This document shows positions 213 to 63,725 of a stretch of 64,000 bases of DNA, in pieces. The position numbers and the translations under genes were made by a program. The DNA is from Tridacna crocea (taxonomy: Eukaryota; Mollusca; Bivalvia; Cardiida; Cardiidae), in assembly GCA_943736015.1 (NCBI GenBank), contig OX031070.1, positions 22,651,673 to 22,715,672 on the forward strand, read 5' to 3'. The notes beneath the pieces were generated by a model that did no database searches, was not told the origin of the DNA, and saw nothing but the letters and a program-made list of their open reading frames with translations. Position 1 is the stretch's first letter, and every line of letters starts with the position of its first letter.

Positions 213-3200
213 CTGCAGTAAGAATGAAATGACAGATCCCGTTACGTAACGCTTTTTCTTAACCCTTTACCAGACAACACTATTTTCAACTCACCCATAT
301 CAAAAGTATTTTCAAAAAAATGTTTGCTCAAATAGACTTGTCTCTGAAGGAGTAGTTCATTACTTCATTAACAGTGCTCTATAACAGAGTATATTGGATA
401 TCACCTGAAAAAAAGGGAGGAACTGATTGAACCAATATTTATATGCAGTCCAATACAAACTCAGTTGACAACCTTTAACCCTTTCCCAAATGACAAATTT
501 TGGACTCTTCCAAACTGCAAGAGTTTGCAGACGACCATTTTAGATTTTGAGAAAATGGCAAAAAGTTCTCAAAAAGGGTAGAAAACACTGTTGGAAAAGG
601 AGAAATTGCTTGTTACGAACAATTTCTCCTTTTCCCATAGTGTTTTCAAAAGACTTTTACCAAGGCTTGTTTGGGAAAGTGCTAAGTACTTATCTGACAT
701 AGAAATTTCTTTTTATGCCTGTTTTTTTTTTTTTAAAACTCTTTGTCGAACAATCACTTCTTAAGACAAACTGGAGAAAAAGTGACCCAGTATTTTCTAT
801 ATAGTAAAAAAGGTGTTCTGAAAGCTGTTTGTAGCAAAAGTGTTTCATAAACCAATAAATGGTCATTTGCCTGTGTAAAATCCTTACCACACATTGTAAT
901 TTTAGACTTGTCCAAACTGAAAGCACTAATTCTCCATAAAAACGGTAGAAAACATTGTGGAAAAAGGAGAAATGCTGGGTTTCCAGCATTTTCTCCTTTT
1001 CTCACAAGTTTTTCGAACCACTATTTTTTTCACAGATGCTGAAACCCAGGATTGTGTTGTAAAGAGTTAGGATGAAATCAAGAGGTGATCTAAAAGCTTA
1101 CCAGTTTACTTCCCTGACCGGGAGTGTTGAAATCAGCCAACTGGTTGTTAAGAACAATACCTGACTTTGTTACAACCATGGAGCCAAACCAATCATTTAC
1201 AGTGCTGAAAAGATAGTATGTCCAAATACTTATATTTGCTCTAAAACACCATTAGCTTCTCTTTTTTATTGTTTTTACCATGAGTACTGTTTATACACTG
1301 CTTTAACTCTTCAACAAACAACAAAATTTTAAACTTGTCCAAACTGGAAAACAATTACTGATGACAAATTTAAGGCCCAAACCATCATATGAGAGTGTGT
1401 AAGGGAAGGAAATAATGGGATAAAGAGAAGATGTTGTTTACCAAGAGTTTCTCCATTTCAAACAAAGTTTTCAAACACCTTTGCTGCAATAGTCAAGGGA
1501 AGTACCGGTAAATAGTAACAAATTTTACCCTTTATAACTAGAGTTATTTCCCTTGATTAATGCTTAAATTGAAGGCACTATAATATGGAAGCCCATGTTA
1601 AATTTGTGATCCCTTGAATGGAGCCAATTTTGACTCCAAGCCTATAATAGGGAGAAACTTGTTAAAGGTCCATAAAATAAAGCTACATGTCAAATTCAGT
1701 AGCCCTAGCACTTGTGGTTTTAGAGAAGAAGATTTCTAAAACTGTTATTGTTTTTTCAGTTTTGTTGCCATGGCAACCAAGAGTTTTTGAAGGAATCATA
1801 TTCTTTCAATATATTCTGAAGGAGGCCATGGCAGGATCATTTCTATGAAGCTTCATCAAATTTGGATGGATAGTTTCAGTGAAGAAGATGTTTGAAAGAA
1901 AAGTAAACACACATATGGATGGACGCACGACAGACAACAGGCCATGACATAAGCCCACTGGCCTTCAACCAGTGGAGCTAAAAAAAAAATTTTTTTTTCA
2001 GTTTAAGATGAAGGTGGCAGTGTCATTCATGAAAATATTACCAATGATGTTCATTCCTTAAAAATAAATTTCTATCTTTCAAAGAAATAAACAAATATCC
2101 TCCATGTATTCTATCTTTACTCTTTACCACATGACAAAAATGTAGACTAGTCCAAATTCAAAGCATTTGCCAGTTTAAATGTAACTAAAATGAGAAAATC
2201 TATCTTTGATAAAAGAGAAAACATTGTGGGAAAAGGAGAAAATGCTGGCAACCAGCATTTTCTCCTTTTCCCACAATGTTTTCTATATGATTCTTTCTCT
2301 GGGTTGTTAAAAGTCAGAATGGTGTGGTAAAGAGTTAAATAAGCATAAAGTACACTATCACTACCTCGTCACAGAAACAATCAGTTCAGCAGGATCAATG
2401 ACTGAGATATGGGTTGTGCCCTTGTCTTCAGGTAGGCCAATTGACTTGCCATAAAACTCTGCACTGTTGGTCATATTCCCTGTAAGATTTCTCAAACGAT
2501 TGGCTTCTTCTTTGCTGTAAAAATATATTGCATTCTTTACAATAGCTTAACTCTTCACCAGCCTGTGAGACAATAATTTCTTCATCTTCTCCAGATTTAA
2601 AGCGTTTGCAAAGGAAAAATCAGATATGGCTAAAATGATGAAAATTGATTTTAAAATGGTAGATAAAACTATGAGAAAAGATGAAAATGGTGGATTCATT
2701 CTTTTCCCATATACGTACAATCTTAATCACCAACTACAATTACAACACTTTGTATTGATCTCCATAGTTTTCAGCCTCCAAAGTTTTATGTATATGCTAA
2801 GTGCCGAGAATACATCCACTACCTACTTCTATTTTTCATCAACATATATATTTTAAAAGATTAATGCCATTTAATGCCATTAATGTTACATTACAATCTA
2901 AGCCCTGTCAAAATTGAAGAGCATTAACCCAATACCACACAATCCCTACTTTTGACGACCCTGAGAAAGAAGCCTTTAGAAAGCATGGCTGGAAAGGAGA
3001 AAATGCTGGTTACCAGCATTTTCTCCTTTTCCCACAATGTTTTCTATGCTTCACAAAACAAATTTCAATTTTTCAGTCTCTTCTATTTTGTCGTCTGCAA
3101 ATGCTTTCAATTTGGATAAACCTAAAGTTTTGATGTTTGGTAATGAGTTATCAGACAGCAAACTTCACATGACTTAGTGAAAAGAATTGTACCCTAAGAG

Positions 3201-6200
3201 AAGAAAAAAATTAAAAGGAAATGCTGGTACTCTACATCATCTGAATTTCTAACAAATTTTTTAAAAACCAGGATTGCAATAACACAAACTACATGAAAAG
3301 CTGACAAATAAAATGGGACTCAAATGGTGAACATTGTCAATGAAAGGGTAGAAAACATCATGGGAGAAATAGAAGAAAATGCTGGTTACCAGCACTTTCT
3401 CCTTTTTTCACAAGGTTTTCAAAAGTCAGAATTGTGTGGTGAAGGGTTAAATAATAAGATACAATAGCCATGCAATGACCATAGACGGTCAACCTTACTT
3501 TCTCTTTTGTTTTGATCCAAGGACAATAACCCTTTTTCTCCAGGTCATTAAAAACTCAGTATTTCTGTGGTAAAGGAATAAAGAACATTCCTTACCTTAT
3601 CATCACATTGGTAGAGTTTTTTATTTCCTGCATATTAAAGTTTGGATCACCTAGTTTCTCTTTCTGGGCATAACCAAACTTAAATGCCTCCAGAAGCCTG
3701 TGATAAGTCATGTTATCTGGAGTGAGCTGGTACCCTTCCAACATGTTCATTATGGACAATACAACTGGTCCACTACCTGGTGCAGGAACCGACTCAATTG
3801 TGTAACCTGAATGAAGGCAAAATTCACTAACTGCTATTGTATCTGAGAAAACTGTCAATAATTTGAGTTAGCGGTTACATGTACTTTCAATTATCTGTGT
3901 TATTACAATGTTTAATACATGTATCTAAAGAAAAGGCATATAAAATTTGCAAGGTGACTAAAATTCTAGGCTTCAAATAAATGTGACTGGCAGATTTAAC
4001 AGAACAAGAGGGCCAAGATGGCCCTGGATCGCTCACCTGAATTTTTGAGATGACCATAGTCTTTTTTTTTTTTTTTTTTGAGGTATTGAAACATTGGAAT
4101 CAAATTTATAATTTTGCCAAGCAATTTTCAAAAGGTCACCTGTAAAAGTCATTTCGAAATCTGACCATCAGTTTCAAAAAGAAGAATTTTTAAGAATTCT
4201 TCATTTCTGTAAAAGAGCAAGTAGCCCCCATCCACGAGAGCCATGTTTCTTGATGGATCAAAATTTACGAACAAGTTTTGAAAAGGGTCACCCAAGGAAC
4301 ATCTCTCTGAAATTATTTCAAAATCTGACCAGGGGTTTCAGAGAAAGAGAATTTTAAAGAATTTCATCATGTCCGTATAGTGCAAGTAGCCCCCATTCAC
4401 AAGAGCCATGTTTCTTGAGGGATCAAAATTATATGTACAGCTTTTGGAAAGGGTCACGCAAGGAACATCTCTGTCAGATTATTTTAAAATCTGACCACAG
4501 GTTTCAGAGAAGAAGAATTTTCAAGAATTTCTTAATTTCCATATAATGCAAGTAGCCCCCATTCACTAGAGCCATGTTTCTTGGCCAATCAAAATTTCAC
4601 GAACAATTTTAGAAAAGGGTCACCCAAGGAACATCTCTGTGAAATTATTTCAAAATCTGTCCAGCCATTTCAGAGAAGAAGAATTTTCAAGAATTTCTTC
4701 ATTTCTGTATAGTGCAAGTAGCCCCCATTCACCAGAGCCATGTTTCTTGACCAATCAAAATTTCGCGAACAATTTTTGAAAAGGGTAACCCATGGAACAA
4801 GTCTGTGAAATTATTTCAAAATCTAACCAGCTGTTTCAGAGAAGAAGAATTTTTAAGAATTTCTTCATTTCTGTATAGTGCAAGAAGCCCCCATTCACCA
4901 GAGCCATGTTTCATGACCAATCAAAATTTCGCGAACACTTTTTGAAAAGGGTCACCAAAGGAACAAGTCTGTGAAATTATTTCAAAATCTGACCAGTGGT
5001 TTCAGAGAAGAAGATTTTTTAAGAATTCCTTCATTTCTGTATAGTGCAAGAAGCCCCCATTCACCAGAGCCACATTTTTTGACGGATCAAAATTTCACGA
5101 ACAATTTTTGAAAAGGGTCACCCAAGGAACATATCTGTGAAATTATTTCAAAATCCGACCAGCGGTTTCAGAGGAGAAGATTTTTAAAGAATTCCTTCAT
5201 AACTGTATAGTGCAAGAAGCCCCCATTCACCAGAGCCACATTTTTTGACGAATCAAAATTTCACGAACAATTTTTGAAAAGGGTCACCCAAGGAACATAT
5301 CTGTGAAATTATTTCAAAATCCGACCAGTGGTTTCAGAGGAGAAGATTTTTAAAGAATTTGCTAAAAAATTCCATTTGGTTGCCATGGCAACCAGAGTTT
5401 TTGATGGAATCAAATTCTGTGAACAATTTTTAAAGAGGACCTCCCAAGGAACATTCCTGCCAAGTTTGGTCCAAATCCGCCCAGCAGTTTAGGAGGAGTT
5501 GATGTTTAAAAAATTGTTGACGACGCACGACGGACGACGGACACCGGGTGATCCTAAAAGCTCCCCTTGAGCATGTTGTGCTCAGGTGAGCTAAAAACAG
5601 TAGTGATACAAATCTGTTTGTCAGTATAAACAAGATATAGCTTGACATGTATTTGGTTAAAAATTTGATTAAGATTTACAATTATAATTATTCCACTTCA
5701 TGTTTGATCACATGGTAAAAATATGTTAACTATATGTGATGGAACTAACATTTCTTCCCTTTCTCGCATTGTTTTCAAGAGCCTTTTTCTTGTATGGTTA
5801 AGACATAAATGAAGTTGTTGATTGCAACTCTACTTCATATAATGCATGTTTTTATCCTACAAAGATAAAAATCAATCGATGAAAATTTTACAAAATACAA
5901 TCAATTAATGCTACAGCACAGGAAAGATAGTAAAAGATCGACATATTGATCATTAGGGGCAATATCTCACTTTGTCACTTTGTTTTCCAAAGTCACATCT
6001 GACAGATTTATCACAACTGGCCTAGACTAACTCTTTACCCAACTTGAAATTTATAGACCAGTCCATATTAAAACCATTTGTATATGAAAACTTGAACACA
6101 GCTAAAATCATGGTATTTGTCTCTGAAAGGATAGAAAACATTATGACTAAAGAAAGAAATGCTCATTGCAAGCATTTCCTTCTTTACCCAAAATGTTTTC

Positions 6201-9200: not shown

Positions 9201-12200
9201 GATACCTGTGTGTCCAGTCATCTTGAAACCATTCCTTGCAAGGTCAGCAGCTGGCTGCACAACATATTTCCAGGCCAATCTGACGAGAAGAAATATCAAT
9301 TCTTTACCGTAAGTCCCAAATTTAAACAGCTCTGACTATGGCAGCTTTTGAAATCATTGTGAGAAAGAAAAAAAGCTGGTAATCAGGTGATAAAATTACC
9401 ATTTTCTTCTTTTTCCACTGTGTTTTCTACCCTTTCACAGACTTATCCCATCAAACAAGCCAAATTTATTTGTTATCTGCAAGTTTTGCAACACATATGA
9501 ATTTAAATTGGATGTTTAGATTTAGGAAAAATTTTCAGATTTACTCCTAGAGTGTGGGGACCTTCAGACCCTTCTGCAGTATTTTGGCACTTTCAAACAT
9601 GGTGACAAACAGAGAAAATGCTTTACACTACCAAACCATCATGACTGTTAAAAGAAAATGCAAGCGAATGCTTTTGAAAAATATAGTGGAGGAAAGGAGA
9701 AAATGCTGGGTTTTTCAATTAACTTATTACCAAATGAAATACTTTTGGATTTGTCCAAACTGACGGCAAATTTCAGGACAAAAATGACACAATTTTTCCT
9801 TGATATAGCAGAAAACATTATGGGAAAATAGATAATGCTGGTTACCAGCATTTTCTCCTTTCCTCACACTGTTTTAAAAATACTTCTTCCTCAGGGTTGT
9901 TAAAAGTCAGACTGTGTTGCAAAGAGCTAAGCTAATTTAATTTTTCATCTGGAAAAGCTTTCAATGTGGTCCAGTTCAAAATTCTGTCATTTGGTAAAAA
10001 GTCAAAGAGAAATTTGTAACTATGTGTTATACTTTGGTCTCGTATCCTTCCATTACTTGTGTCTTGTTTCACTCCATGTGTAGATTTGAAAGACTACACA
10101 TTTAATTTACAAATTATACAATGATTAATACAAACTGGATGGTTAATACAGCTACTACTAACAGATGTCTCCAATTGACAACTAAATTTACTCAGCATGT
10201 TTTACTCTTGGACAAGCAATTTCTCCTCTTGCTTCAATGATTTCCCCTACATGAAAGAATTCAATCTCAATTCATGCAGATTAAATCTATCCTACTGTAA
10301 CTTCTAGTATATAAAAAGTTGACATAAGCAAGATTCTTTTGTAGTTTTTTTTTCCGGAGAAAAAAGGGTTAGCTACCAGCATTTTCTCCTACAATGTTTT
10401 CTATAGACTTTTTTCTTCAAGCCTTTCAAACTCAGGATTGTGTGGTAACAGGCTAATAGAGTATGGGTTTTATCAAATGTAAAAACTATTTTTTTTTTTC
10501 AAAAAAAAAAAACACACACATTAAAATTAGATGTAGACATACTTTCCATATTTCTTGTGAGCAACCTCCATTCCCTTCAGCTCACCTGGAACTCCAACAG
10601 ACTGTGTTCCCTAGAACATTAACATACAGAAAATGATCCATGCTCTGTGAAAGGGGGGCTTATTAAATCTGTGAAAAAAGTATTGACCCAGGTCAGCCTG
10701 CGCAGCCCTCCCAGGCTGACATGGACCAAAACTTTTCACTATTGGTCAATTTTCTACCTGACAAAGGACCAGTTTACTTAATCCATTACCACACAATCCC
10801 TACTTTTGACGCCCCTGAGAAAGAAGCCTTTAGATAACATTGTGGGAAAAGGAGAAAATGCTGGTAACCAGCATTTTCTCCTTTTCCCACAATGTTTTCT
10901 ACCCTCCACAAAACAAATTTCAAATTTTCCGTCACTTTTACTTTGTCATCTGCAGTTGCTTTCGATTTTGACAAACTTAAAATTTTGTTGTTTGGTAAAG
11001 GGTTAATAATTCAGTCTGTTTTTACACAAAATTAATAGGCTGTTAGACAAATGGACTTTATGGATCCATAATTTAATAAATTATATAATGACTTGCTAAG
11101 TATGATGCATCAAAGAGATAAATTTAGCCCCCTTGTGCTAGAGCATGGTTAAAATGATAAAAAAAAAAAAAAAAAAAATGAAACAATAAGGTGAAAAGCA
11201 ATCTGATTTTATGTCTGCTTGAAAAGTATGAAATAACATTTTTGGACAAAGAAAATACTTGTAAACTATAGATGGTCGAGAGAGAACAAGAGAGAGGGAG
11301 AGGATAGAGAAACTAATGTGTACTTGTTAGTTATGGTCGGATGAGAGAATGATAAAGATAGAGACATAGAGAAATTGAGAAGAAGCAACTGAGAGAAACT
11401 AGAGCTATCACTCAACGTGATCATACCCCCCACCAGCTCCTTGCCACCAAACAGGTCTTTGTCACAGAATGCAGAATTGTTGAGTACAAAAGTAAGAGTT
11501 GAACATGAGCGGAAAATTGTCGCAAGATACGCCCATCTTACCCCTAGCTGTTAAGCTGGGGCATGCACCGGACCAAATTCAAGTATGAAAAACGACAAAG
11601 GGTAATAACTCAAAAATCAAGTGAGCAAGAGTTATGATTCCTGTGCACTGCACTCCCCCTTGATGAGATCTATCCATCCATGAAATTTCATAACCCTAGC
11701 TAGTATAGTTTTGAAGATATGCTCCGGACAAAATTCAAGTATGAAAAACAACAAAGGGTAATAACTCAAAAATTAAGGGAGCAAGAGTTATGATTCTTAT
11801 GCACTGCACTCCCCCTTGATGAGATCTATCCACCCATGAAATTTCATAACTCTAGCTAGTATAGTTTTGGAGATATTCACTGGACCCAATTCATGTATTA
11901 AAGACGACAAAGGGCAATAACTGAAAAATTAAGGGAGCAGGAGTTATGATTCCTATGCACTGCACTCCCCCTTGATGAGATCTATCCACCCATGAAATTT
12001 CATAATCCTAGCTGGTATACTTTTGGAGATATTCACCAGACCCAATTCAAGTATTAAAAACGACAAAGGGCAATAAATCAAAAATTAAGCAAGCAGGAGT
12101 TATGATTCCTGTGCACTGCACTCCCCTTGGTGAGATCTATCCAGCCATGAAATTTCATAACCCTAGCTAGTATAGTTTTGGAGATATTTAGCTTTAACCC

Positions 12201-15200
12201 TTTAACACACAATACCGACTTTACACAACCCTGAGAAAGAAAGCCTTTGAAATCATTTTGGCAAAAAGAGAAGATGCTGGTTACCAGCATTTTCTCCTTT
12301 TCCCACAATTTTTTTCATCCTTACAGAAACAAATTTCAATTTCTGAGTCATATTTATGTTTTCTGCAAATGCTATGGACAAGTCTGAGATATTGTCATTT
12401 GGTACAGCATTTCAGTCCATTTTATATTAGCAGTTCAAAGATTAACTAGGCAGTCATTAAAAATACATACAAATTTCAATCCTTCAGGATTATTTAGGTA
12501 CATATCTACAGTAGTCTCAGACGGGGCTGTCTCCCTGAAATCTATCACTTCTGATGTCTCTACTTTATGATCATGTATCAGCATGAAACCTCCACTGTAA
12601 AGTGATAATTTTCCCATTATCACACAATACTTTTCTACCTACTCAAAATTCGTACAGATGAAGAAAACTACATATTCTAAATTTACTATGAAAATAAGCG
12701 AAAAAAAATTCAAGCAATGTTATGAACAATTGTTCCCCTTCCCTCAATATTTCAATCTTTTGAAAGCTGTCATTTGCTGTGATTCAAAAAGCTATGTATT
12801 AATGGGGCAATGAATTGTTTATATCCTCTTATCCTCTGTACAAAGTTACTTTACCACTGCTAGAAGATAACTTTGTTTAACCCTTACCAAACGACAATAT
12901 TTTAGACTGGTCCAAATTGAAAGCATTTGCAGACGACAAAATAAAAGTAACTGAAAATTTGAAATTTGTTTTGTGAAAGGTAGAAAACATTGTGGGAAAA
13001 GGAGAAAATGCTGGTTACCAGCATTTTCTCCTTTTCCCACAATGTTTTCTAATGGCTTCTTTCTCAGGGGTGCCAAAAGTCGGCATTGTATGGTAATGGG
13101 TTAATCCTGCTACAGACAATTTTTGAAAGTATTCAGGGCAAAAAATTGTAATTCTTATCATGAAAAAATTCTGCTTTAAAATAAATCAAACCACTGACTT
13201 TCTACTAAAGTATTTGACAAATCCAGAACGAAGCACTAGTGGAACACATCATCACAAATCATGAAATCCACCTCAAGAGCATACAAAGCAATGTGGTAAA
13301 ATTGACAGAACAAAAAAAATGTGCTTAAAGATAAACAGTCCACTTGAATTGTATGGCAACCAGTTTTGGGAAAAGAAGCAAATGCTGATAACTAACAATT
13401 AGTCCTTTTCCTCAAATGTTTCTTAATGCTGTCTACATCTGAATCCAAGAAAATTGCATTAACTTTGGTAGAGCAGTAAAACTGATAATAGTAGCAGCAG
13501 CAAGTTGATTGAGTCATTTAACTTGAGGTTCTGTTTACAGTGTGACATCCCAATAGTAAAACAAAAACAAGAAACTAACCCTCCAAGTCCAGAGCTTTCA
13601 GCATTCACAACTCCAACACAAAACATGGCAGCAACTGCAGCATCTACAGCATTACCACCCTTGCTTATCATCTGTAAACCTATATCTGAGCACTCTTTGA
13701 CATCTGCTGCTACTGCTGCATTGGCTCCAATCTAGACACATGCAAAAAGCAGAGTTATAATAAGGGAAAACTTACGTGATTAACCCTTTCCCAAACGACA
13801 AATTTTAGACTCTTCCAAACTCAAAGAGTTTGCAGACGACAATTTCAAATTTTGATGAAAATGGCAGAAAGTTCTCCAAATGAGTAGAAAACACTGTGGG
13901 AAAAGGAGAAATTGCTCGGTTACGAGCAATTTCTCCTTTTCCCACAGTGTTTTCAAAAGACTTGTACTGCAGACACATAAAAACAAGGGCTTGTTTGGAA
14001 AAGGGTTAAAAAGTAACATTGCCTCAAATCTTTACAAAGACCTTCACTGAAAAAATGCAGGAATGGGATTTTATAACACATTTCTTCACTAAATATTACC
14101 AGAATGTTTCCAATAAACTCTTGCACAGACACTTTTAACTAACCCCTTTACCAAACAACAAAATTTTATACTGGTTCAAACTGAAAGCACTTTCAGACGC
14201 CCACATAAATGCTTGAAATTTGTTTCCAGCAGGGTAGAAAACATTGTGGGAAAAACTCAGGGTTGTACAAACCAGAAATTGTTTGGTAAAGGGTTAAAAC
14301 ATCTTTTGCTAAATAACAATACATTCAGGCTTGTAGATACCCATATTCAGTATGGGACAGAATCAACATGACTACCCAAAAACTGTAAGTTTCTATTTCT
14401 TGAAACAAACTTCTTCAACTTTCATCTTCAGTGCAAGGAGCACTTTAGTTTGTCCTGGGAAAACATAAACAAACATGAATTAAAGGTGGCCCTTCAGAAT
14501 TTGGGACGAAAATTTTACAAAAATACAAAAATATCATCCTTATACTCCCAAAGCCGTATAATCGTCATTCATAAAACCCCAGTATTCGAAAACCATCCGA
14601 CAACACGAGAAATTAGAGATTTACTATGGCCAAGGTCGACATCAGCGGGAAACACAAACTATTTTTACATGAACATCTCCCTTATTTACATACTGGAAAA
14701 ACACAGACGAAGCTTAAAACATAGCGTCCGAAGCAAATATTATGAAAAATAATTACATGTTTGTTATGTAATGGAATTTAAGCGTCATTGGTCACGTGCC
14801 AGTCACTTAACATTCCCATAATGCATTTTTTTTGTTTTTGGCGCGAAATCTAAAAATAGCTAAGAGGCTACGTAGCCTTTTAAGGGAATACCATCAAAAA
14901 AATTTTTTGGGGTAATTTTATGATTTTTAATTATTGATGATTTGTATTGTTTTTTCATAAAAATTTCAGTGATATATATATTTTTTGATTTGGTGTGATG
15001 TGAAATTTCTAAGCACCCACCTTTAAACTTAACCCTTTACTTCATAGATACTCATTTCTACGCATTGCTTGTAGGAGCCTTTGGAAAACATTGTGGCAAA
15101 AGGTGAAATTGCTCCTGACGAGCAATTTCACCTTTTGTCACAATGTTTTCTATGCTATCAAAAGGTGTCATATACACATAAGAAACGGTTTCATCCTTGC

Positions 15201-18279: not shown

Positions 18280-18391
18280 TTTTCTAAAGGTTTTGAATGC
18301 TACTGTAATGCTTGTTTAAAAAAAGTATTCTTATTTCTCTGAAAAAGTAAAGTAGGTATAACTCAGCAATAACTAATATTTAGCTTAATCC

Positions 18392-18600: not shown

Positions 18601-18631
18601 TGAGCTAATAAAGATGCCTATGCAACAACAG

Positions 18632-20720: not shown

Positions 20721-20768
<48 letters not shown>

Positions 20769-23700: not shown

Positions 23701-26700
23701 GTTACTTTGACAAAGTTCGTCTTCTTTTGCCATCAATTAAATTGGTTCGACTTTTTCCAGATCAAAACGAGTGTTCCTACTGCAATCGAAGCTGATTTCC
23801 GTCAAATGCATAAGCATCCGACAGCGGAAGGTATAGATCCAAGATCAGACTGCATGTGTTGTGAATTCTGATCTTGCTCTACACCTTCCGAAGAAGCTGT
23901 CCACAGCAGTGGATGGGTTAACATCGAGAGATTTTGTTTTACAAAAACAGGACCTACGGCACTATAGCCCAGGTGATAAAGTCAAATGAAATATACCCCA
24001 CCGTTTATTTTCCTGTCAGTTTTCCTGATAACGCAGAGACCGCTTTATGTTAATGAATGTGTTACGTAAATCGTTATCCCGTTTCTTATCTTTGACATTT
24101 GATATAATTATACTTTGCTGTTCGTAATTAACACACAGCCACGCAAAAGACGACTTTTACTTCGTCTGGTAGCGAGATACTTTATCAAGAACGTTATATA
24201 TGAAGAAAGGAAAACAGAATAAGTGACGAAACAGGAAATCGCAGTTTGTCCTATTTCAACAGTCTTTCGCATCCATTAATTTGGGTTTTTTTTACATTAT
24301 TTAGTCATACTTTAAAATGAATTATGCTTCATATCTATGCCAGGGCAAGAAAAGGGTCGGTACGCACCAACCACTCTAAGGAAAATCTCTAGTCCTACGC
24401 TTCAGGATTTTCTAAATCTGAAAGTAACACTACTTCTGATTGGCTAAACCAGATGGTTTAGCCTATCAGAAGTTGTGTTACGTTCAAAGGAATTAGACCA
24501 AGAACGTTCTTACGAGTAGCTGGAAAAAGAACACTGAGATATCTTATCGGACGCACAGAGGACCGCAGAGCTACGCAAATGATTAGTCCCGTTCGAGAAT
24601 AATAAAAGAAATGATGGTTCTGCTGCAAACTAAAGAGATGTTGATCTAAGTAGCTTGAAGTGGCAGGGGTTCAAGATCAGGTTTCATGTACCGTTGAATC
24701 TGATCTTCATCTTTGCTGTGCGCAAAACCTGTGCGAAAGCGATGGAAGGCTAGAAACCAATTTCCCGTCAACAAACAATCCGTGTTTGAACGATACAAAA
24801 AAGAATTATCTGGGAAATACTGCAGGAAAAAGAAGAAAATGTTGATAACCAGCATTTCACCCTGTTTCCAAACATTATTTTCTGACTCGCTAGAGGATTG
24901 ATTGATCATTTGATGTGATTACCAATTTGTCGTTAACATAATTTATATGTTTTCTGTCGGTAAGGATCTAAAATTTGTCACTCCGGGAAAGAATTAACTC
25001 TTCATCAAACGACAAGATTGTAGCCTGGTCCAAACTGATAGCATTTGCAGACGGCAAACTACATATGGCTCAAGTGACAGAATTGTTCATTGATACAGTG
25101 AAAAACATTGTGGAAAAAGGAGAAAATGCTGGTTACCAGCATTTTCTCCTTTTTCCACAATGTTTTCAAAAGGCTTCTATCCTATGGTCGTTAAAACCTG
25201 GATTTGCTCGGTAAAGAGTGAAATGACCTATATCAGCAGTACTGTACTTCTTCTAATTAGAGCACGCTCTATGCTGTTATGGATACTTCTGAGAAATAAG
25301 ACGCAAAACCTTTGATATTTCTCGAAGTGTTATAAAATCTATGGCATCCTTTTCCGCATATTCAAATAAGTTCTTTACAGTAATTCTTGAACCGTCCCTT
25401 TACAAGGCAACAAATATTTACACCAGTCAAAATAATTCGAAGCCATGTGGCTAAAATTATTTAGTTTTTTTCTTTGAAACATTATTCGACCCCCGTTTGA
25501 AATAGAAAACATGGGGAAAGGACAAAATGTTGAATACCAGCATTTTCTGCTTTTCCAACAAAGGTTTCCGGTTTCGAAAGCGTTTTCCCATTTTGGTTGT
25601 TATAATAGGGAAACATCAACCCTTATCCTGCTTAACCCTTTCCCAAACGACAAAATTTTAGACTCTTCCAAACTCAAAGAGTTGCAGACGACAATTTCAA
25701 ATTTAATAAAGATGGCAAAAATTTCTCCAAATGGGTAGAAAACACTGTGGGAAAAGGAGAAATTGCTCGTTACGAGCAATTTCTCCTTTTCCCACTGTGT
25801 TTTCAATAGACTTGTACTGCAGACACGTAAAAACATGGGCTTGTTTGGGAAAGGGTTAATAACTAAAATAAAATTTCCAATTGGATAGTAATAACTCAAA
25901 TACTGAGTTTTCAAAATTATGTTTTGGGGAATACTATCTCCATAACGGACAGTGTAGATCCAAGATCTGGCTGCACGTTCTGTGCAGCCTGATCTTGATC
26001 TACACTGTCCGCAAAAGGTCACGGTAAGTATCGTTTAGCAGTCTAAGGATCGGTTTCGTGCATGAGTGATGTTAGCGAGTAATGAGATTATTAAGTAACT
26101 CAAGTGTTTAAAGACCGTAAAATGACTTAGGCGACAATGTGCAAGAACTTAATACATAGTTGCACCATTTTTCCACATTTAAACGGTTTCCCAAACAAGC
26201 CCTTGTTTTACGTATCTGCTGTACAAGTCTTTTGAAAACACTGTGGGAAAAGAAGAAATTGCTCGTAACTAGCAATTTCTCCTTTTCCCACAGTGTTTTC
26301 TGCCCCTTCGGGTAATTTTCTGCCGTTGTTATGAAAGTTGAAATTGTCGTCTGTAAACTCTTTCAGTTTGGGAGAGTCTAAAATTTGTCGTTTGGGAAAG
26401 GGTTAATCAGTATGTATGTCAGCCATGCTCTATTAAAAGGGGGTTTAATGCATCTGCAAAAAGTATCGACTCACGTCAGCCTGTGCAGGCCGCGCGGGCA
26501 GACCTGGGTTGAAACTTTTTGCCATCTGTCAATTTCCTGCAAGTCAAGGGACCAGTCCAGTTGGTAGTTATGAAAAAAAAAAGATGGATTTTATGGACTT
26601 ATCTTTATGTGAAGGAGATGTGTTTAACTCCCTATTGTCAGAGCATGGCTCATGTGTTATTTAACAGTTCACTTCACCTTTTAAAGCGCCCCAGTGTTTT

Positions 26701-36070: not shown

Positions 36071-36300
36071 TCAACCCATTACCACACAATCCCTACTTTT
36101 GACGACCCTCAGAATGAAGCCTTTAGAAAACATTGTGGGAAAAGGAGAAAATGCTGATAACCAGCATTTTCTCCTTTTCCCACAATGTTTTCTGCCCTTC
36201 ACAAAACTTATTTCAAATTTTCAGTCACTTTTTTTTTGTCGTCTGCAAATGCTTTCAATTTGGACCAGTCTAAAATTTTGTCGTTTGGTAAAGGGTTCAA
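36071..36300 (+). mobile_element. TTAA MITE, family A, full length
   Basis: Terminal TCAA/TTCA are one-base variants of TTAA. Centre AATGCTGATAACCAGCATT. Possibly within the FABP 3' UTR. Confidence 0.9.
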
Positions 36301-43800: not shown

Positions 43801-46800
43801 AATTGCTGTTCCTGATGATTTTTATCCAGATTTCTAGGATGTGTTTAAAATTGTATGCTATGAATTAATTTCAAATGAGTCAAATTTGTGGATGGTTCTT
43901 TTCCTCCAAGAGTCCATGAGTTACATGGATTTACATGTACCTGTACAAGTTGAAGTATTAGCTCTTTGTCAAGGTAAAATTTAAGTCACAGATTTAATCA
44001 GACAGATTTTTATCTGTTAGGCTTCACTGAACAAGCAGACTACATAGAACCATGATCAGGCTGTGCAGTCCGTGCAGTCTGATCTTGAACTATGTTGTCA
44101 GCAAAATTCCATATTTTTGCGAGTGGAAATGAGAGAGTTAAACTTCCAATAATGGATTGGAAAACTTTCCTTGACTCCGAAAAATTGGAATCAGAGATTT
44201 TGGTGATCTTACCCACAACAGTGAAAAAGTTCACACGCTGCCTTTTATTTACTCGCAGGCTTTCGGATGACCCTGTGTTCTTTGTCTATGATCATAACAT
44301 GCTGAAAAAAGAAGAAGATGACTTAAAAGATGCAATTTTGTACTTCTCACCAGAATATGTAAGTCAGTAATTGATCTTATTATCTCTTTATTTCTTTACT
44401 CTTTACCAGACGACCAAATTTTTGACTCATCCAAATTGAAAGCATTGGAAAACAATTGAATTAATGCAACTTGAAAACTGAAATTTGTCTTGGGAAGGGT
44501 AGAAAACATTGTGGGAAAAGGAGAAAATGCTGTTTACCATTTTCCCACAATGCTTTATAAAGGCTCTTTCATAGAGTAAAAAAAGCAGGGATTGTTTGAG
44601 AAAGGGTTAAAAGAATATAACAAAATTTTACAATTACCCAAATTAATTAACCCATTACCACACAATCCCTACTTTTGACGCCCCTGAGAAAGAAGCCTTT
44701 AGAAAACATTGTGGGAAAAGGAGAAAATGCTGGTAACCAGCATTTTCTCCTTTTCCCACAATGTTTTCTACCCTTCACAAAACAATTTTCGATTTTTCAG
44801 TCACTTTCATTTTGTCGTCTGCAAATGCTTTCGATTTGGCCCAGTCTAAAATATTGTCGTGTGGTAATGAGTTAAGACTTTGGTAGACTACAAGTGAAAC
44901 ATTGCTCCGATGATGAGATTTGTCTTTGAAAGAATAGAAAACACCAGCATTACCAGCATTTTCTCCTTTTCCCACAATCTTTTCAAAAGGCTTCTTTCTC
45001 AGAGTGGTTAAAGCTTGAAATTGTGTTATAAAGATATCTATTGCTGAATGTGATAAATATTTAGTTTGTGCACTTGATAATAACACAATTTTACCAATTT
45101 CCTAAGGCTTATATAACAGTTATAGAAAATGTTTAAAATTAGAATGGTTTCCCTTTAAGTTGTCTGAACATACATTTAATCTGAGGGATTCCTGTAAATG
45201 AGGAGCATTCATAAATGTAGATAAGTAACTCTTTGCCAGATGCAAATCTGATTTATATACAAGCTACAAGTTTCACCTTAAAACATTGTAGGAAAAGGAT
45301 AAAAGGCTGGTTAGCAGCATTTTCTCTTTTACCATGGAATGTTCAAATTTACATAATCTATATTCTAGATGTCAGCCGATGACCAGTGTGCCCTGTGTGG
45401 ACAGCTGATGGGAATGGCTGAATTCCTGAGTGCCTCTATCAGTCAGTCAGCCCCGATGTTCTTCAAGTTTGACCATGAAAAGTTTGCATTAAAACGGATT
45501 GGTTCCTATTCTTTTGTGAGTATTAGCATTCAAAATGATCTTATATTAGTGTAGGATGTTTATTTGTTTAACCTTTCTCGCTGCACACTAGTTTTAAAAA
45601 CTGTGATGGAATGTACTTTTGAAAACATTGTGGGTAAAGGAGAAAATGCTGGTATCAAGCATTTTCTTCATTTCCCACAATGTTTTCTACACTTTTAGAG
45701 ACAACTCTTATAATATGAACTACATTGAATCATTGCCTGCAAGTGCTATCAATTTTGACATGGCTAAAACTTTCTGGTCTATTTAACTCATTACCAAACG
45801 ACAATATCTTAGGCTTGTCCATATGGAAACTATTTGCAGACGACAAAATAAAAGTGACTGAAAATTTGCAATTTGTTTTGTGAAGGGTAGAAAACATGGT
45901 CGGAAAAGGAGAAAATGCTGGTTACCAGCATTTTCTAAGGAGAAAATGCTGGTTTCCAGCATTCTCTCCTTTTCCTACCATGTTTTCTAAAGGCTTCCTT
46001 CTCAGGGTCGTCAAAAGTAGGGATTGTGTTGTAATGGGTTAAGGGTGTACTATTAACCAGATATAAGACCTGCTTTATGAGCAGTTCTCTCTTTCTTACA
46101 TTGTTTTTAAAAGCAACTTGCATCCATGTTTTCAAAAATTGAATGGTAAAAGCTTAAGTCTTTCCCTCATGTAGACAACTTGTGTCATCCAGTTGACCAC
46201 AAATAAAAATATTGTGGTCAGAGGAGATGTTACTGATGAGAAATTTCTCATTTTGCTACAATGTTGTCAAATGATTTTCCATATTTACCCATAACCAAAC
46301 AATTCCATGTTTCAATAGTCCTAAGGAAATAGTTTTCGAAAATAATTATTTTTTTAAAAGGAGAAAGTTTCATTTAATGTGTCTTGTGTAAATGCTTTCA
46401 GTTTGTGCAAGTTTGAAATTTTGTCTACTGATAAAAAGTTAATCCTATAGAGGATCCCTGGGTTGTAAAGATTTTAAAATTGATTTTTTCTACTTCTTCT
46501 CGGTGTGTACACATATAAATTTTTGAAATGTTATTTTTTGGGGGGGTGGGGGGGGGTCCATCGAAAATGCTCTCGTCTTATTATTTGATACTTTGATTTC
46601 CGGATTTCAGTGGATGTAAGCCGTTTACAAGAAAAGTCAACATTTCCAGTTCTAACCATGAGGAGGTCTTCACATTTAGAACCTTTTGTTTTTAATTTAT
46701 GACTGTATTTTACATAAATGCTGCGCAGTATCAAACCAGTATCATTTTTCACGAATCCGATAACCACATTTTTGCCAAAATTCTAGGGGGGGAGGTCTGG

Positions 46801-49800: not shown

Positions 49801-52800
49801 GTTCATTGGCCCACACTTTCAGTCCAAGTACTGATGTAGATCCCAGGAAGCAGAATCAAAGGAGGTTGGTAAAAGTTTCACAACAACTTTCATTTCTTCC
49901 GTCATATCTGTTTTTAGTTAGCAAATGCTTTCAATTTTGATAATCTTAAATTTTGTTATTTTGGAAAGAGTGAAATGTTTTCAACCCTTTGCAAGACAAG
50001 AAAATGTTAAACTTACCAATATTTATTGCATTTGAAACATTCAAATGTGGCTAAAATGTTGAACATTGTTAAAGAGGGAACAGCATGTTGGAAAAAGGAG
50101 ATAATGCTGGTTTTCAGCATTTTCTCCTTTTTATAAGCCAGTCGAAGACGGGACGTATTATGGGATCACCTGTGGCATGCAGGCGGGCGGGCGGGTGGGC
50201 GTCGGGGCGGGCGGGCAGGTGGGCAGGCAGTGTCCAGTTCTTTGTCCGGAGCATATCGCCAAAACTATACTAGCTAGGGTAATGAAATTTCGTGGGTGGA
50301 TAGATCTCATCAAAGGGGAGAGCAGTGCACAGGAATCATAACTTTTGCTTGCTTAATTTTTTTGTTATTGCCCTTTGTTGTTTTTCATATTTGAATTTTG
50401 TCCCGAGCATATCTCCATAACTATACTAGCTAGGGTTCTGAAATTTCATGGGTGGGTAGATTAATAAGGGGGAGTGCAGTGCACAGAAATCATAACTCTT
50501 GCTTACTTAATTTTTGAGTTATTGCCCTTTGTTGTTTTTCGTACTTGAATTTTGTCCGGAGCATATCTCCAAAACTATACTAGCTAGGGTTATGAAATTT
50601 CATGGGTGGATAGATCTCATCAAGGGGAGTGCAGTGCATAGGAATCATAACTCTTACTCACTTAATTTTTGAGTTATTGCCCTTTGTCGTTTTTCATACT
50701 TGAATTTTGTCCGGAGCATATCTTCAAAATTATACTAGCTAAGGTTATGAAATTTCATGGGTGGATAAATCTCATCAAGGGGGGTGCAGTGCACAGGAAT
50801 CATAACTTTTACTCGCTTAATTTTTGAGTTATTGCCTTTTGTCATTTTTCATACTTGAATTTTGTCTGGAGCATATCTCCAAAACGATACTAGCTAGGGT
50901 TCTGAAATTTCATGGGTGGATAGATCTCATCAAGGGTGAGTGCAGTGCACAGGAATCATAACTCTTGCTTGTTTAATTTTTGAGTTATTGCCCTTTGTTG
51001 TTTTTCATACTTGAATTTTGTCGGGAGCATATCTCAAAAATTTATACTAGTTAGGGTTATGAAATTTCATGGGTGGATAGATTTCATCAAGGGGGAGTGC
51101 AGTGCCTAGGAATCATAACACTTGCTCGCTTAATTTTTGAGTTAGTGCCCTTTGTTGTTTTTCATACTTGAATTTTGTCCGTTGCATGCCCCAGCTTTAC
51201 AACTTGGGGTAAGACGGGCGTATTTTGCGACAATTTGCAGCTCTTGTTCCACCATGTTTTAATTTGCTTTCTTAACCCTTTACCCAATTAGGCATTTTTA
51301 TGGTATCTCTTATTGACCCTATATCACAGCAAGGATGAAGCCTTTTGTTATGTGTATATGACACCTTTAGATAGTGTAGAAAATATTGTGGCAAAAGGTG
51401 AAATCTCGTCACTAGCAATTTCACACTTTGCCACGATGTTTTCCAGAGGCTCCTACAAGCAATGCGTAGAAATGAGTAACTATGGAGTAAAGGGTTAGGG
51501 TTGTTAAAACTTTGGATGGTTTGGTATATGGTTTTTGAGCATATAATTCAAATTTAGGGAGTACATGTACTACTGAAAGTCTTTTGTCTTACAAAACTGT
51601 TTCAGGGTTTTATGCACTCAACTTTCACCAGCCTTGACACGTCATTTAACTTATCTACAAAACCAGGTATGCATTTTGAACTTTTTGTCAGAAAAAAAAA
51701 CAACTTTACAAAACAATCTCATGTGTTATTGATGCCTGATAAGGAAGTGCTGTAAGAGTAATGCCAAGGATGCTAATGCCTAGAATATGTAAGTGGAAAG
51801 TGTAGATCAAAGATCAGACTGCACATTATGCACTGTCTGATCTTGATCAGCTGTGGTCATGAAAGGGGCTTTTAGGGTTACTGTTGTTTAACCCTTTACT
51901 AAACAATCCCTGATTTTTACAACCATGATGTAGAAGCCTTTTGGAAACATTATGGGACTTCCCAAATTTCAGCTTTTGAGTTATGTGTATTTTGTCATCT
52001 GCAAGTGCTCTCAGTTTGGTCCAGTCTTCAATTTTGTTGTTTGGTAAAAGTAAAAAGATGTCTATGTAAGAAAGCAGGCAGTGATTTGGTAAGAACAATG
52101 CGCAAAGTTCTGGTAAAAGCAACAAGTTTTGGAAGAACATGGTGCTATGTATTAATTCTTTACCACACTGGCCCAACTTTTAACACCCCAATTAAAAGGG
52201 CCTTTAGAAAACATTGTTGGAAAAGGAGAAAATGCTGGTAACCAGCATTTTGTCTTTTTCCCACAGTTTCTTCCTTTCCTAAAACAACTTCAACTCTATA
52301 GTCATATTTATTTTGTCGTCTGCAAGTGTTATTGAACCAGTCTAAAATTTTGTCGTTTGGTAAAGAGTTAAGCAAACATAAAATCATTAAACATATTAGA
52401 TAATACAAAAAACATTAGATGATATTAGACAATGTTACAATGTTATTAATCAAGTGATTTCTTATTGGCCCAGTTACAGGCCCGAGGTCAGTTGTATTGG
52501 CCCAAGGCCGAAAGCTGAGGGCCAATACGGCTGACTGAGGACCTGTAACTGGGCCAATCACTTGATCAATGACATTTTTATAGATCAATTGTTGGCTCAG
52601 AATGTCGACCTTCAACTTCGCATAACACATTCTCAGTTTCTTTGGCTGACAAGAGTTCAAAGCGCCCAATATCGTCTGCTAAGACTTCAAGCATATCTTT
52701 CCCTTTTTGGGCATTTTTTATGGGACATTCTCTTTTCCTCAGACATTTGATTTCTTTAAACATAAGAAACGAAAACTTGTAGCATAACATCGGCCATTTT

Positions 52801-55800
52801 TGTTTACCCAAAATAAGAACAGATGCTCACGTGACTGAACTTTTGACCAATCACGTTCAAGGATTTCTGTATTGGTCGCAGGTCATCAATATTGATACGA
52901 GGTCAACTGTGTTGATCGGAGGTCAAGTCGTATTAAGCTGGGGTCACAACCTGTATACTATACGAAGTAAGAAATTTGACTAGTATCTCGTGGACCGGTT
53001 TCCACATATAACTTCTATATGCATGGATCTAATAGTTAATTAATAATCGGTGATAATAGCTGTGCTTGTATTGTTTCAGATTCCATTCATTGCCAGAAAT
53101 ACAGGTAAAATCTCTTCTTTTTCTTTTTTTTATATTTAAACTTTGATTTCTTTTAAAAACTTTTTACAGCACAATCCCAGGTTTTAACAAGAAGAAGAGG
53201 CCTTGCGTAGTAAAAGAACATTGTGGGAAAAGTGGGAAGGGCTTGTAACCAGTTTTTTCTCCTTTTTATACGCCCGTCGAAGACGGGACGTATTATGGGA
53301 TCACCCGTGGCGGGCGGGCGGGCGGGCGGGCGGGCGTCCGGGCGGGCGGGCGGCGTCCAGTTCTTTGTCCGGAGCATATCTCCAAAACTATACAAGCTAG
53401 GGTTATGAAATTTCATGGGTGGATAGATCTCATCAAGGCGGAGTGCAGTGCACAGGAATCATAACTCTTGCTTGCTTAATTTTTGAGTTATTGCCCTTTG
53501 TTGTTTTTCATACTTGAATTTTGTCCGGAGCATATCTCCAAAAGTATACTAGCTAGGCTTATGAAATTTCATGGGTGGATAGATCTCATCGAGGGGGAGT
53601 GCAGTGCACAGGAATCATAACTCTTGCTTGCTTAATTTTTGAGTTATTGCCCTTTGTTGTTTTTCATACTTGAATTTTGTCCGGAGCATATCTCCAAAAC
53701 TATACTAGCTAGGGTTATGAAATTTCATGGGTGGATAGATCTCATTCAGGGGGAGTGCAGTGCACAAGAATCATAACTCTTGCTTGCTTAATTTTTCAGT
53801 TATTGCCCTTTGTTGTTTTTCATACTTGAATTTTGTCCGGAGCATATCTCCAAAACTATACTAGCTAGGGTTATGAAATTTCATGGGTGGATAGATCTCA
53901 CTGAGGGGGAGTGCAGTGCACAAGAATCATAACTCTTGCTTGCTTAATTTTTCAGTTATTGCCCTTTGTTGTTTTTTATACTTGAATTTTGTCCGGTGAA
54001 TATCTCCAAAACTATACTAGCTAGGGTTATGAAATTTCATGGGTGGATAGATCTCACCGAGGCAGAGTGCAGTGCACAAGAATCATAACTCTTGCTTGCT
54101 TAATTTTTGAGTTATTGCCCTTTGTTGTTTTTCATACTTGAATTTTGTCCGGAGCATATCTTCAGAACTATAGTAGCTAGGGTTATGAAATTTCATGGGT
54201 GGATAGATCTCACTGAGGGGGAGTGCAGTGCACAAGAATCATAACTCTTGCTTTCTTAATTTTTCAGTTATTGCCCTTTGTCATTTTTTATACTTGAATT
54301 TGGTCCGGTGAATATCTCCAAAACTATACTAGCTAGGGTTATGAAATTTCATGGGTGGATAGATCTCACCGAGGCGGAGTGCAGTGCACAGGAATCATAA
54401 CTCTTGCTTGCTTAATTTTTGAGTTATTGCCCTTTGTCGTTTTTCATACTTGATTTTTGTCCGAAGCATATCTCTAAAACTATACTAGCTAGGGTTATGA
54501 AATTTCATGGGTGGATAGATCTCATCAAGGGGGAGTGCAGTGCACAGAAATCACAACTCTTGCTTGCTTAATTTTTGAGTTATTGCCCTTTGTTGTTTTT
54601 CATACTTGAATTTTGTCTGGTGCATGCCCCAGCTTTACAACTTGGGGTAAGACGGGCGTATCTTGCGACAATTTGCCGCTCTTGTTCCACAATGTTATCT
54701 ACAATGTCAAAAGACTTCTGTACACTTTTATCACTTGTTAACTGGTTATCTTCAGATGCCTCAAACTTGGGTAAACTTGGAAGAGCTTTGAATTTGTTTT
54801 GATGGTAACAAGTTATATTTTCTGTGTGTACTAATAGTAGTTGATCTTTTTTTCAGACGGTAAAATTTTTGCCTTGTCCAAATTGAAAGCTTTTGCAGAC
54901 GAAAATATCATTGTGACTAAAATGGTGCAGGTCTTCTTTGATAGGGTAGAAAACATTGTGGGAAAAGGAGAAAATGCTGGAAACCAGCACTTTCTCCTTT
55001 TCCCACAATGTTTTCAAAAGGCTTCTTTCCTAGGGTCTTTAAAAGAAGTCACTGTGTGGTAAAGGGCTAAGAAAACTAGTTTTTGGTGCCAATTCCATCA
55101 TTTTGCTTATTTGTTAAGTCTTTTTAAAACAATAAATTTCCAAAATCAGAGAGTCCAAAGATTCCAATTTTCAAATATTAAAGGCAAGTTGTCATTTCTC
55201 AAACTACCAGTCAAAAAGGAAATTCGATTTCATAAACATACTTGATTCATGATTTCATAAAAATACTTGATTCATGATTTCATAAACATACTTGATTCAT
55301 GAGAACGTAAAACAATTAACTTTCAGATACATGTTGAAACGGTAAAATTTTGCAGTGTAAAAATTACCTCATCCAGTAAGATGGCAGAGCACTTGGAAAC
55401 TTGCTTATAATTTCAGCTCAGTTTGACATGATTTTCCACAGCTGTTAACAAGTTTCCAAGTACCCTACCACTTGACCAGAAAGCTAATAAAGTTGTTTGA
55501 TTAGGTAGAAAAAGCTTTGTTGGAAAAGTAGGCACTGTTTGTCATAAGCAATTTCTCCTTCTCCCATATTGTTCAAACGCCTTCACATCCTCAAGGTCGT
55601 GAAAACTTAGGATTGTTTTACAAAGGTCTGATTTAACCCATTACCACACAACCCCTACTTTTGACACCCCTGAGAAAAAAGCTTTTAGAAAACATTGTGG
55701 GAAAAGGAGAAAATGCTGGTAACCAGCATTTTCTCCTTTTCCCACAATGTTTTCTACCCTTCACAAAACAAACTTCAAATTTTCAATCACTTCTATTTTG

Positions 55801-62492: not shown

Positions 62493-62558
62493 ACAGTGCT
62501 ATAATTAATTTATAAACAGCAAATGTGTTCACTATTATATTTTTGTCAGTTTGTTATG

Positions 62559-62564
62559 ATTAAA
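62559..62564 (+). promoter_or_regulatory. ATTAAA polyadenylation-type signal, HPS4
   Basis: First canonical-variant hexamer after the stop, 67 bases downstream, followed by GT-rich sequence. It would give a short 3' UTR free of MITEs. Confidence 0.45.
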
Positions 62565-62609
62565 CAGTTGCAATATGTGGAAATACAAAATGTGTTATGG
62601 GTTATTTTA

Positions 62610-62990
62610 TTCATCCCTGAACTGGACCAGATGATAACCTTTTAGACTTGTCTATATTGGAAGCATTTGCAGACAACAAATTAACCCTTTACTCCATAAG
62701 GTATGTCTATGTTATCTCTAATTGACCCTAAATAACAGCAAGGATGAACCATTTCTTATGTGTATATGACACCTTTTGATAGTGTAGAAAACAGTGTGGT
62801 AAAAGGTGAAATTGCTCGTGACGAGCAATTTCACCTTTTGCCACAATGTTTTCAAAGGCCCCCACAAGTAGTGTGTAGAGAAGTAATGAATATCTATGGA
62901 GTACAGGGTTAAAAGTACTTCTGGCAAGAGTAATGTCTTTAAGCTGGCTATAGAAAGCATTGCCAGGGAAGGAGAAATGCTTGTTACAAT
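62610..62990 (-). mobile_element. Family-A MITE split by a family-C MITE
   Basis: 62610-62680 is an A left flank (GACTTGTCTATATTGGAAGC); A-like sequence resumes at 62913 (TATAGAAAGCATTGCCAGGG). Confidence 0.55.
62681..62912. mobile_element. TTAA MITE, family C, full length
   Basis: TTAACCCTTTACTCCATAAG and TATGGAGTACAGGGTTAA; hairpin ATTGCTCGTGACGAGCAAT. Confidence 0.92.
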
Positions 62991-62993
62991 GTT

Positions 62994-63144
62994 TAACTCT
63001 TTACCAAACAATTTTCGGTTTTAGATAGAATCCTTTTGAAAACATTGTTGGAAAATGAGAAAATGCTGGTAACGTTTATTTTGTCATCTGCAAGTGCTTT
63101 GAATTTGGACCACTCTAAAATTTTGCTGTTTGGTAAAGGGTTAA
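62994..63144 (+). mobile_element. TTAA MITE, family A, right arm deleted
   Basis: Left arm to GCTGGTAAC joins directly to GTTTATTTTGTCATCTGC. Confidence 0.82.
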
Positions 63145-63594
63145 TTCTTCACCTCACAATACCAAGTTTTTAGGACCCTGTGAAAGAGGCCTTTTGAAAA
63201 AATTGTGGGAAAAGATAAAAATGCTGGTAATCAGCATTTTCCCCTTTTTCCTGCCACGAATAATTTCTACTTTTTCAAAGACAGAAATTACCATTCAGTT
63301 TAAACATATTTATTTTACATCGATTGAGAGACAAGTTCTGCCAACTTATACTAATCTCTCTCAATTCTGCTTCCTGGGAGCTACACCAGTACTCGTGCCG
63401 AATGTATGGGCTGATGAAAAATCCCTAAGTTGACACCGGCTCCCGGGAATCGAACTTGCCATTTGGTTACATGGCCGACGCTCAAACTCACGACCACGGA
63501 CACCACTATTGTCACCACCATTTCAGCTACATGTTGTCTGTACTTGCTTTCAGTTTGGTGGGATCCAAAATTTTGTTGTTTGGTAAAGGGTTAA
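63141..63594 (+). mobile_element. TTAA MITE, family A, carrying a tRNA-like insert
   Basis: TTAATTCTTCACCTCACAAT left, TTTGGTAAAGGGTTAA right; shares TTAA 63141-63144 with the preceding copy; insert from about 63290 to 63530. Confidence 0.75.
63425..63532 (-). repeat. tRNA-derived SINE fragment
   Basis: Minus strand: AGTTCGATTCCCGGGAGCC (B-box) preceded by TGTAGCTGAAATGGTGG-like A-box region. Inserted in a MITE. Confidence 0.5.
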
Positions 63595-63613
63595 AATGTC
63601 TTGCTGAGAGTAG

Positions 63614-63725
63614 TTAACCCTTTACCACATACTCCCACATTCTGGTAACATTTAGGATAGAGGCTTTTGGAACATTATGGGAAAAGGAGATAATGTTGGT
63701 TACTAGCATTTTCTCCATGTTATTT
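63614..63725 (+). mobile_element. TTAA MITE, family A, right-truncated
   Basis: TTAACCCTTTACCACATACT to TACTAGCATTTTCTCC, then replaced by the next repeat. Confidence 0.7.

What the first reader, a model, noticed from the sequence alone, without database searches (positions are those of the whole stretch)
475..63725. Extreme density of palindromic TTAA-target MITEs
At least 80 copies or fragments of about 225-230 bp elements with TTAACCCTTT..AAAGGGTTAA ends and a 60-70 bp near-perfect central palindrome fill introns and intergenic DNA of all three genes, about one per 700-800 bases. The CCC-type ends and TTAA target fit piggyBac mobilisation (known family rule); a central rather than terminal long palindrome is unusual for piggyBac MITEs.
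Basis: partly seen in the sequence, partly recalled or inferred. Interest (0 to 1): 0.85.

Follow-up and report, generated by a model that had tools for sequence, protein, structure and literature searches.

The report
Million-copy palindromic mini-transposon

Summary
A 229-bp element (both TTAA included) covers 33% of the window: 121 copies or fragments, 58 with both ends. In 20 samples (200 kb) of the 1.05-Gb genome it covers 19% (bootstrap 14.0-24.5%), implying about 1.2 million copies or fragments. An exact 29-bp core string occurs 208,145 times. Insertion at TTAA is supported: 72 of 146 full copies have TTAA on both sides, and the cleanest paralogous empty sites hold a single TTAA. The ends fit the piggyBac rule and the genome holds many piggyBac transposases. 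However, of 118 matches only 17 loci were read; ends were resolved in 7 and none matches, so the partner is unidentified. The 67-bp palindrome is perfect in the consensus, lies off-centre and varies in matched pairs: 10,723 copies of a variant changed on both arms against 12 hybrids. In-place repair between arms looks weak at the one pair tested with a control. Best reading: a piggyBac-type nonautonomous element whose source copies keep a long palindrome; the palindrome's function is inferred.

The parts
260..63718 (.). Span holding 121 merged copies or fragments of the element (60 plus, 61 minus), 33.0% of the window
   Evidence: nhmmer model; shuffled control 0 hits
44647..44875 (+). Best-scoring full-length copy in the window, TTAA to TTAA
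   Evidence: 245 bits; both TTAA present; single-strand DNA fold -53.5 kcal/mol against -18.4 (sd 3.05) for 200 shuffles, z -11.5
44702..44768 (+). 67-bp palindrome of that copy (consensus positions 56-122)
   Evidence: consensus palindrome without mismatch over 33-bp arms; paired in the fold
36073..36297 (+). Near-full-length copy (239 bits)
12880..13103 (-). Near-full-length copy (236 bits) between gamma-glutamyltranspeptidase-like segments
13780..14009 (-). Full copy with the second core type (CTCG..CGAG), TTAACCCTTT..AAAGGGTTAA
15029..15257 (+). Copy with divergent arms and a core of the GGTGAAATTGCTC type
14811..14952 (.). Paralogous empty site (single TTAA) for the insertion at L024:7856-8084
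   Evidence: 88% identity over 144 bp
26421..26516 (.). Paralogous empty site (single TTAA) for the insertion at L026:1857-2085
   Evidence: 79% over 97 bp; 4 of 4 paralogous sites have TTAA

Best explanation
It is a very large family of short, non-coding, nonautonomous DNA transposons of piggyBac type. SHOWN: the element is flanked by TTAA and inserts at TTAA; it has CCC-type ends; it is present at an estimated million or so copies and fragments; its palindrome is long and perfect in the consensus; and its subfamilies differ by matched changes in the two arms. INFERRED: a piggyBac-superfamily transposase supplied in trans recognises the ends and moves the element by cut and paste; the copies that seed new insertions are filtered for an intact palindrome; resident copies then decay. 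Most likely (inference) the palindrome is an internal binding or folding dyad that helps the transposase bring the two short ends together, comparable to the palindromes bound by paired C-terminal domains in piggyBac and piggyBat ends.
For: TTAA on both sides in 72 of 146 full copies of window plus samples, left 103, right 96 (all loci held, some overlapping: 84 of 169). Empty sites in other repeats with one TTAA: 4 of 4 for L026:1857-2085, 3 of 4 for L024:7856-8084, 4 of 7 for L027:6646-6861. piggyBac transposases: 118 domain matches, a lower bound; four lineages with resolved ends begin TTAACCC. Palindrome constraint: mean divergence from the consensus 8.4% in the core, 19.5% in the arms, 172 copies; parsimony changes per column, core against non-CpG arms, 1.39 against 4.20 on internal and 8.2 against 14.1 on terminal branches, 155 of those copies; exact strings of equal length 208,145 (core) against 32,293 (an arm stretch of above-average conservation). 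Matched change: the consensuses of the main and second clusters (86 and 12 copies) differ at 6 of 67 core positions, which are three pairs changed on both sides, and at 37 of 162 arm positions. Genome-wide 10,723 double-arm variants against 12 hybrids. Fairly fixed spacing to both ends.
Against: No partner with matching ends: 17 loci of 118 matches read, ends resolved in 7. The four lineages with resolved ends contain no comparable long palindrome in the representatives scanned (L031, L032, L033, L035, L037, positions compared by hand). Of 22 insertions with a paralogous site, TTAA is the commonest reading in only 8; the rest are near-TTAA or poor alignments. The L026 and L027 cases sit at the same TTAA of the same host repeat and may not be independent. 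Whole-genome pair tests were made at a few pairs only, and the local pair table uses copies found with palindromic query strings, which favours those types. The lower terminal-branch rate in the core could mean slower decay of resident copies, which source-level selection alone does not predict. Other palindromic repeats are common in this genome (40 of 196 long palindromes found are not this core; one of the 40, at window 45936, lies between two copies of it), so a general process that makes hairpins is not excluded.
Confidence: 0.65

Rival explanations
1. The palindrome is kept by mutation, not selection: one arm is copied onto the other in place (template switching or gene conversion through a hairpin).
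For: Matched double changes exceed independence: 198 against 62 expected for one G-C to A-T pair, and 19 against 0.55 expected (1.4 with the age factor of the control) for one G-C to C-G pair. Local matched changes in all: 76 against 58.7 (sd 6.7) in permutations.
Against: A non-partner control double change is also in excess, 291 against 119, so most of the A-T excess is age mixture; the partner/non-partner ratio is 1.30 (relative Poisson error 9%). Local private matched changes 31 against 25.1 (sd 4.9). One-sided changes are far commoner, 798 against 85 matched and 55 unpaired double changes.
Confidence: 0.15
2. It is mobilised by another TTAA superfamily such as Kolobok.
For: Kolobok also targets TTAA and has long-lived MITEs in Xenopus (PMC6004289, passages).
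Against: Kolobok ends begin AGGRR or AG (same passages); here the ends begin CCC, as in piggyBac (CC[C/T]T rule in PMC2872659, passages). No search for Kolobok transposases was made here.
Confidence: 0.08
3. The palindrome is selected as a hairpin RNA (small-RNA source or regulatory hairpin), not for transposition.
For: Very stable fold; copies lie close to open-frame segments.
Against: No expression data were available; Rfam at gathering thresholds finds nothing in the window; constraint is stronger on internal than on terminal branches, as expected for propagation of source copies.
Confidence: 0.1
4. Copies spread as satellite or segmental duplicates and not by transposition.
For: Some nested or adjacent copies, and a 98% identical stretch of about 3.9 kb on two contigs that holds copies.
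Against: Single-TTAA empty sites, balanced strands, TTAA-bounded copies in differing flanks.
Confidence: 0.02

Closest known systems
piggyBac-derived MITEs of corals (CMITE, PMC2872659; passages seen)
   Same: Short, TTAA target duplication, CC[C/T]T terminal motif
   Different: A 67-bp palindrome with matched arm changes here ('palindrom' does not occur in that paper's text); no partner with identical ends found here, whereas AmiPB1 shares its ends with CMITE family I
piggyBac / piggyBat transposon ends (PMC11707139; passages seen)
   Same: TTAA target (recalled), and short palindromic sites in the ends bound by paired cysteine-rich domains
   Different: Those palindromes are about 12-19 bp; here one palindrome of 67 bp in a 229-bp element
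T2-MITE / Kolobok of Xenopus (PMC6004289; passages seen)
   Same: TTAA target, long-lived high-copy MITE family
   Different: AGGRR ends instead of CCC

Membership tests
piggyBac superfamily (nonautonomous member) | TTAA target site duplicated on insertion, single TTAA in the empty site | tested here: met
   72 of 146 full copies with TTAA on both sides; empty sites 4 of 4, 3 of 4 and 4 of 7 in the clean cases, TTAA commonest in 8 of all 22
piggyBac superfamily (nonautonomous member) | Terminal motif CC[C/T]T | tested here: met
   Left consensus CCCT; the right consensus reads CTCT, with CCCT in many copies
piggyBac superfamily (nonautonomous member) | Short terminal inverted repeats, about 12-19 bp | tested here: met
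   The two consensus ends agree at 12 of the first 15 positions after TTAA, counted by hand on the consensus
piggyBac superfamily (nonautonomous member) | Autonomous piggyBac element with the same ends in the genome | tested here: inconclusive
   17 loci read of 118 matches; both ends resolved in 7, none the same; in the other 10 no matching pair of ends was seen
piggyBac superfamily (nonautonomous member) | Precise excision by piggyBac transposase | not testable with these tools
   needs an assay
MITE | Short, non-coding, inverted ends, fixed target duplication, high copy number | tested here: met
   229 bp; about 1.17 million copies or fragments estimated
Kolobok / T2-MITE | Ends beginning AGGRR or AG after TTAA | tested here: not met
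   Ends begin CCC (rule from PMC6004289 passages)

The most novel reading that the evidence does not exclude
A long internal palindrome is an essential cis-acting part of a piggyBac-type MITE, acting as an internal transposase dyad or folding element, and its possession let one 229-bp element reach about a million copies and a fifth of a 1-Gb genome. Its arms evolve by matched change in the source lineages.
Probability: 0.35. Interest if true: 0.8.

Novelty: new variant of a known kind. Interest (0 to 1): 0.62.

Why it matters
How MITEs out-multiply their parents is, from general knowledge, an open question. Here one family makes up an estimated 19% of a genome and carries a structural feature with clear matched variation, so the feature can be tested directly for a role in mobility. 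For scale, one survey retrieved 239,126 MITE insertions of all families from four wheat-group genome drafts (PMC6200218, abstract and outline seen).

Tried and rejected
Partner hunt: 17 piggyBac loci were read of 118 matches, some of which are pieces of one locus. Both ends were resolved in 7 loci, four lineages (L031/L038/L039; L032; L033/L035; L037). L041 gave one end only. L036 gave only a weak pair (10 of 14); core-like stretches lie near it and near L030, not tested against background. L029, L030, L034, L040, L042, L043, L044 and L045 gave no convincing ends. Element copies flank several of these loci and were not counted as their ends.

Singletons within the 86-member cluster suggested equal rates in core and arms (1.02% and 0.91%); smaller clusters gave lower core rates. 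I judged the columns of the large cluster saturated and used instead, whose lower terminal-branch rate in the core is only partly explained. An exact 87-bp left-half count (1,831) does not settle whether the family is active now.

Outside relatives: none in viral contigs (exact core pattern) or phages (one copy); near records may be left out there. Five sequence strings were sought in the paper library; two papers held one each and look unrelated by title (not read). The listings (several capped) named no paper that I recognised as describing this element; subscription papers are mostly missing. PMC10294476 and PMC9942856 were seen in passages only.

Full report
OBSERVATION. A fuzzy search for a 29-bp palindromic core gives 85 sites in the window; five shuffles give 0 or 1. 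An iterated profile gives 121 merged copies or fragments in the window, 58 with both ends, 33.0% of the sequence; shuffled sequence gives no hits. Strands are balanced (60 plus, 61 minus).

SCALE. Twenty 10-kb stretches at round coordinates that I chose on contigs C1-C14 (not a random draw) hold 152 cores, 39 of them exact. That predicts about 204,500 exact cores in the genome; the whole-genome count is 208,145, so the samples are representative for this string. From the same 20 samples the family covers 19.3% of the genome (bootstrap 14.0-24.5%), or about 1.17 million copies or fragments (0.87-1.48 million). Two of the 20 stretches held none. The window is denser than average.

ANATOMY. Consensus 229 bp including both TTAA. 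Left end TTAACCC[T/A]TTACCACACAATCCC; right end, read inward, TTAACTCTTTACCAAACGACAAAATTTT, with CCC in many copies. A 67-bp palindrome without mismatch in the consensus lies at 56-122; its centre is 88 bp from the left TTAA and 140 bp from the right, a fairly fixed spacing (77 and 56 of 123 copies exactly). The sequence outside it is not palindromic apart from the ends, so the element has an orientation. One copy folds at -53.5 kcal/mol as single-stranded DNA against -18.4 (sd 3.05) for shuffles.

INSERTION SITE. Of 146 full copies in window and samples, 72 have TTAA on both sides, 103 on the left and 96 on the right; in the window alone 19 of 49 have both. With the other loci held, some overlapping, it is 84 of 169. 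This fits aged copies. Joining the flanks around one TTAA finds paralogous sites for 22 insertions. In 8 of 22 the commonest reading at the junction is TTAA; the clean cases are L026:1857-2085 (4 of 4), L024:7856-8084 (3 of 4) and L027:6646-6861 (4 of 7). In the last two the copy's own flanks no longer read TTAA, and L026 and L027 lie at the same TTAA of one host repeat, so they may not be independent. The remaining cases are near-TTAA readings or poor MITE-to-MITE alignments. Together this supports insertion at TTAA.

PARTNER. The piggyBac transposase domain has 118 matches, a lower bound, 26 of the best 30 without an inner stop. I read 17 loci. In 7, of four lineages, both ends are recognisable: TTAACCCTTTATATAC (about 2765 bp, three copies with 99% identical proteins), TTAACCCTTTCAGTGC (2693 bp), TTAACCCTAGTCATGC (2606 and 2610 bp) and TTAACCCATTTATGCC (2883 bp). 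They share 7-10 letters with the element and then diverge. Their end strings as typed (one shortened) do not occur in window plus samples, whereas three element-end strings occur 32, 27 and 23 times. In the other 10 loci no matching pair of ends was seen, but most ends were not resolved. The partner is therefore not identified. Kolobok ends (AGGRR or AG, PMC6004289 passages) do not fit.

PALINDROME. Core divergence from the consensus is 8.4%, arms 19.5% (172 copies). In pairwise comparison the core/arm ratio is 0.42-0.48 in all bins of arm divergence that held pairs. On a tree of 155 copies, core changes per column are a third of the arm value on internal branches and 0.58 of it on terminal branches. 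The inner 19 bp of each arm are on the whole the most constrained. Subfamilies differ by matched pairs: five of the 33 pairs have a second paired type in at least ten local copies, namely T-A to C-G (23), G-C to C-G (11 and 18) and A-T to T-A (12 and 23), with few intermediates at the transversion pairs (198 cores, found with palindromic query strings). Genome-wide, the 29-bp string changed at two pairs on both arms occurs 10,723 times, the hybrid with one arm of each type 12 times, one pair changed on both sides 19 times, and on one side only 679 times.

IS IT REPAIRED IN PLACE? For one G-C to A-T pair: 7,204 one-sided and 198 matched against 62 expected from independence. A control with non-partner positions on the two arms: 6,872 one-sided and 291 double against 119 expected. 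Observed/expected is 3.18 for partners and 2.45 for non-partners, so most of the excess is age mixture; the remaining 1.30-fold excess (relative error 9%) may be small source lineages or rare copying between arms. In local data, private matched changes are 31 against 25.1 (sd 4.9) in permutations, while all matched changes are 76 against 58.7 (sd 6.7). So the symmetry appears to be kept mainly in the lineages that seed new copies. One pair with a control is thin support, and the lower terminal-branch rate in the core is not fully explained by this.

CONTEXT. Of 196 long palindromes found in 349,547 bases held, 156 are this core and 40 are classed as other (one of these, at window 45936, lies between two copies of the core), several of them from other repeat families. 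Hairpin-like repeats are thus common here, which leaves room for a general process.

MECHANISM. Shown: TTAA insertion, ends, abundance, palindrome, matched change. Inferred: piggyBac transposase in trans, cut and paste, selection of source copies for an intact palindrome. The closest biochemical analogy is the palindromic site bound by two C-terminal domains in piggyBac and piggyBat ends (PMC11707139 passages), but those sites are about 12-19 bp, and no such role has been tested here.

NOVELTY. The kind of element (TTAA MITE) is known. In the searches made I saw no description of this abundance or of a co-varying internal palindrome; listings were partly capped and the library lacks most subscription papers.

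Noticed in passing
window 4151-5360, 11563-12187, 21523-21874, 50241-51181, 53364-54625: Tandem arrays of 155-166 bp units; those at 50241 and 53364 share a unit.
   Followed up: no
window 49294, 24451; L013, L014, L019, L028: A second, palindromic repeat of about 190 bp (8 copies aligned) with GTATTCACCAACCATTCTTAAGAAC-type ends.
   Followed up: partly
window 30161, 20239, 37479, 30943, 31067; several L loci: Further hairpin-like repeat families of roughly 70-90 bp, boundaries not settled.
   Followed up: partly
G000 C13:4.48-4.61 Mb, C8:56.71-56.76 Mb, C8:50.40-50.44 Mb: Clusters of mostly broken piggyBac-domain matches close together.
   Followed up: no
L031, L038, L039: A piggyBac lineage with about 99% identical proteins at three sites and matching ends, which looks recently active.
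   Followed up: partly
L029, L043: piggyBac-like genes 94% identical, with short repeats beginning TTAATCCTTT at about 73-bp spacing upstream.
   Followed up: no
L034 and L042: A stretch of about 3.9 kb, 98% identical on two contigs, with copies of the element; such pairs could measure decay after insertion.
   Followed up: no
window 47233-47548: A copy interrupted by a separate palindrome (GGATACCCCGGGGTCTCCCTATTTGC) near 47391.
   Followed up: no
L026:1857-2085 and L027:6646-6861: Two copies inserted at the same TTAA of the same host repeat family, which may mark a preferred target.
   Followed up: partly
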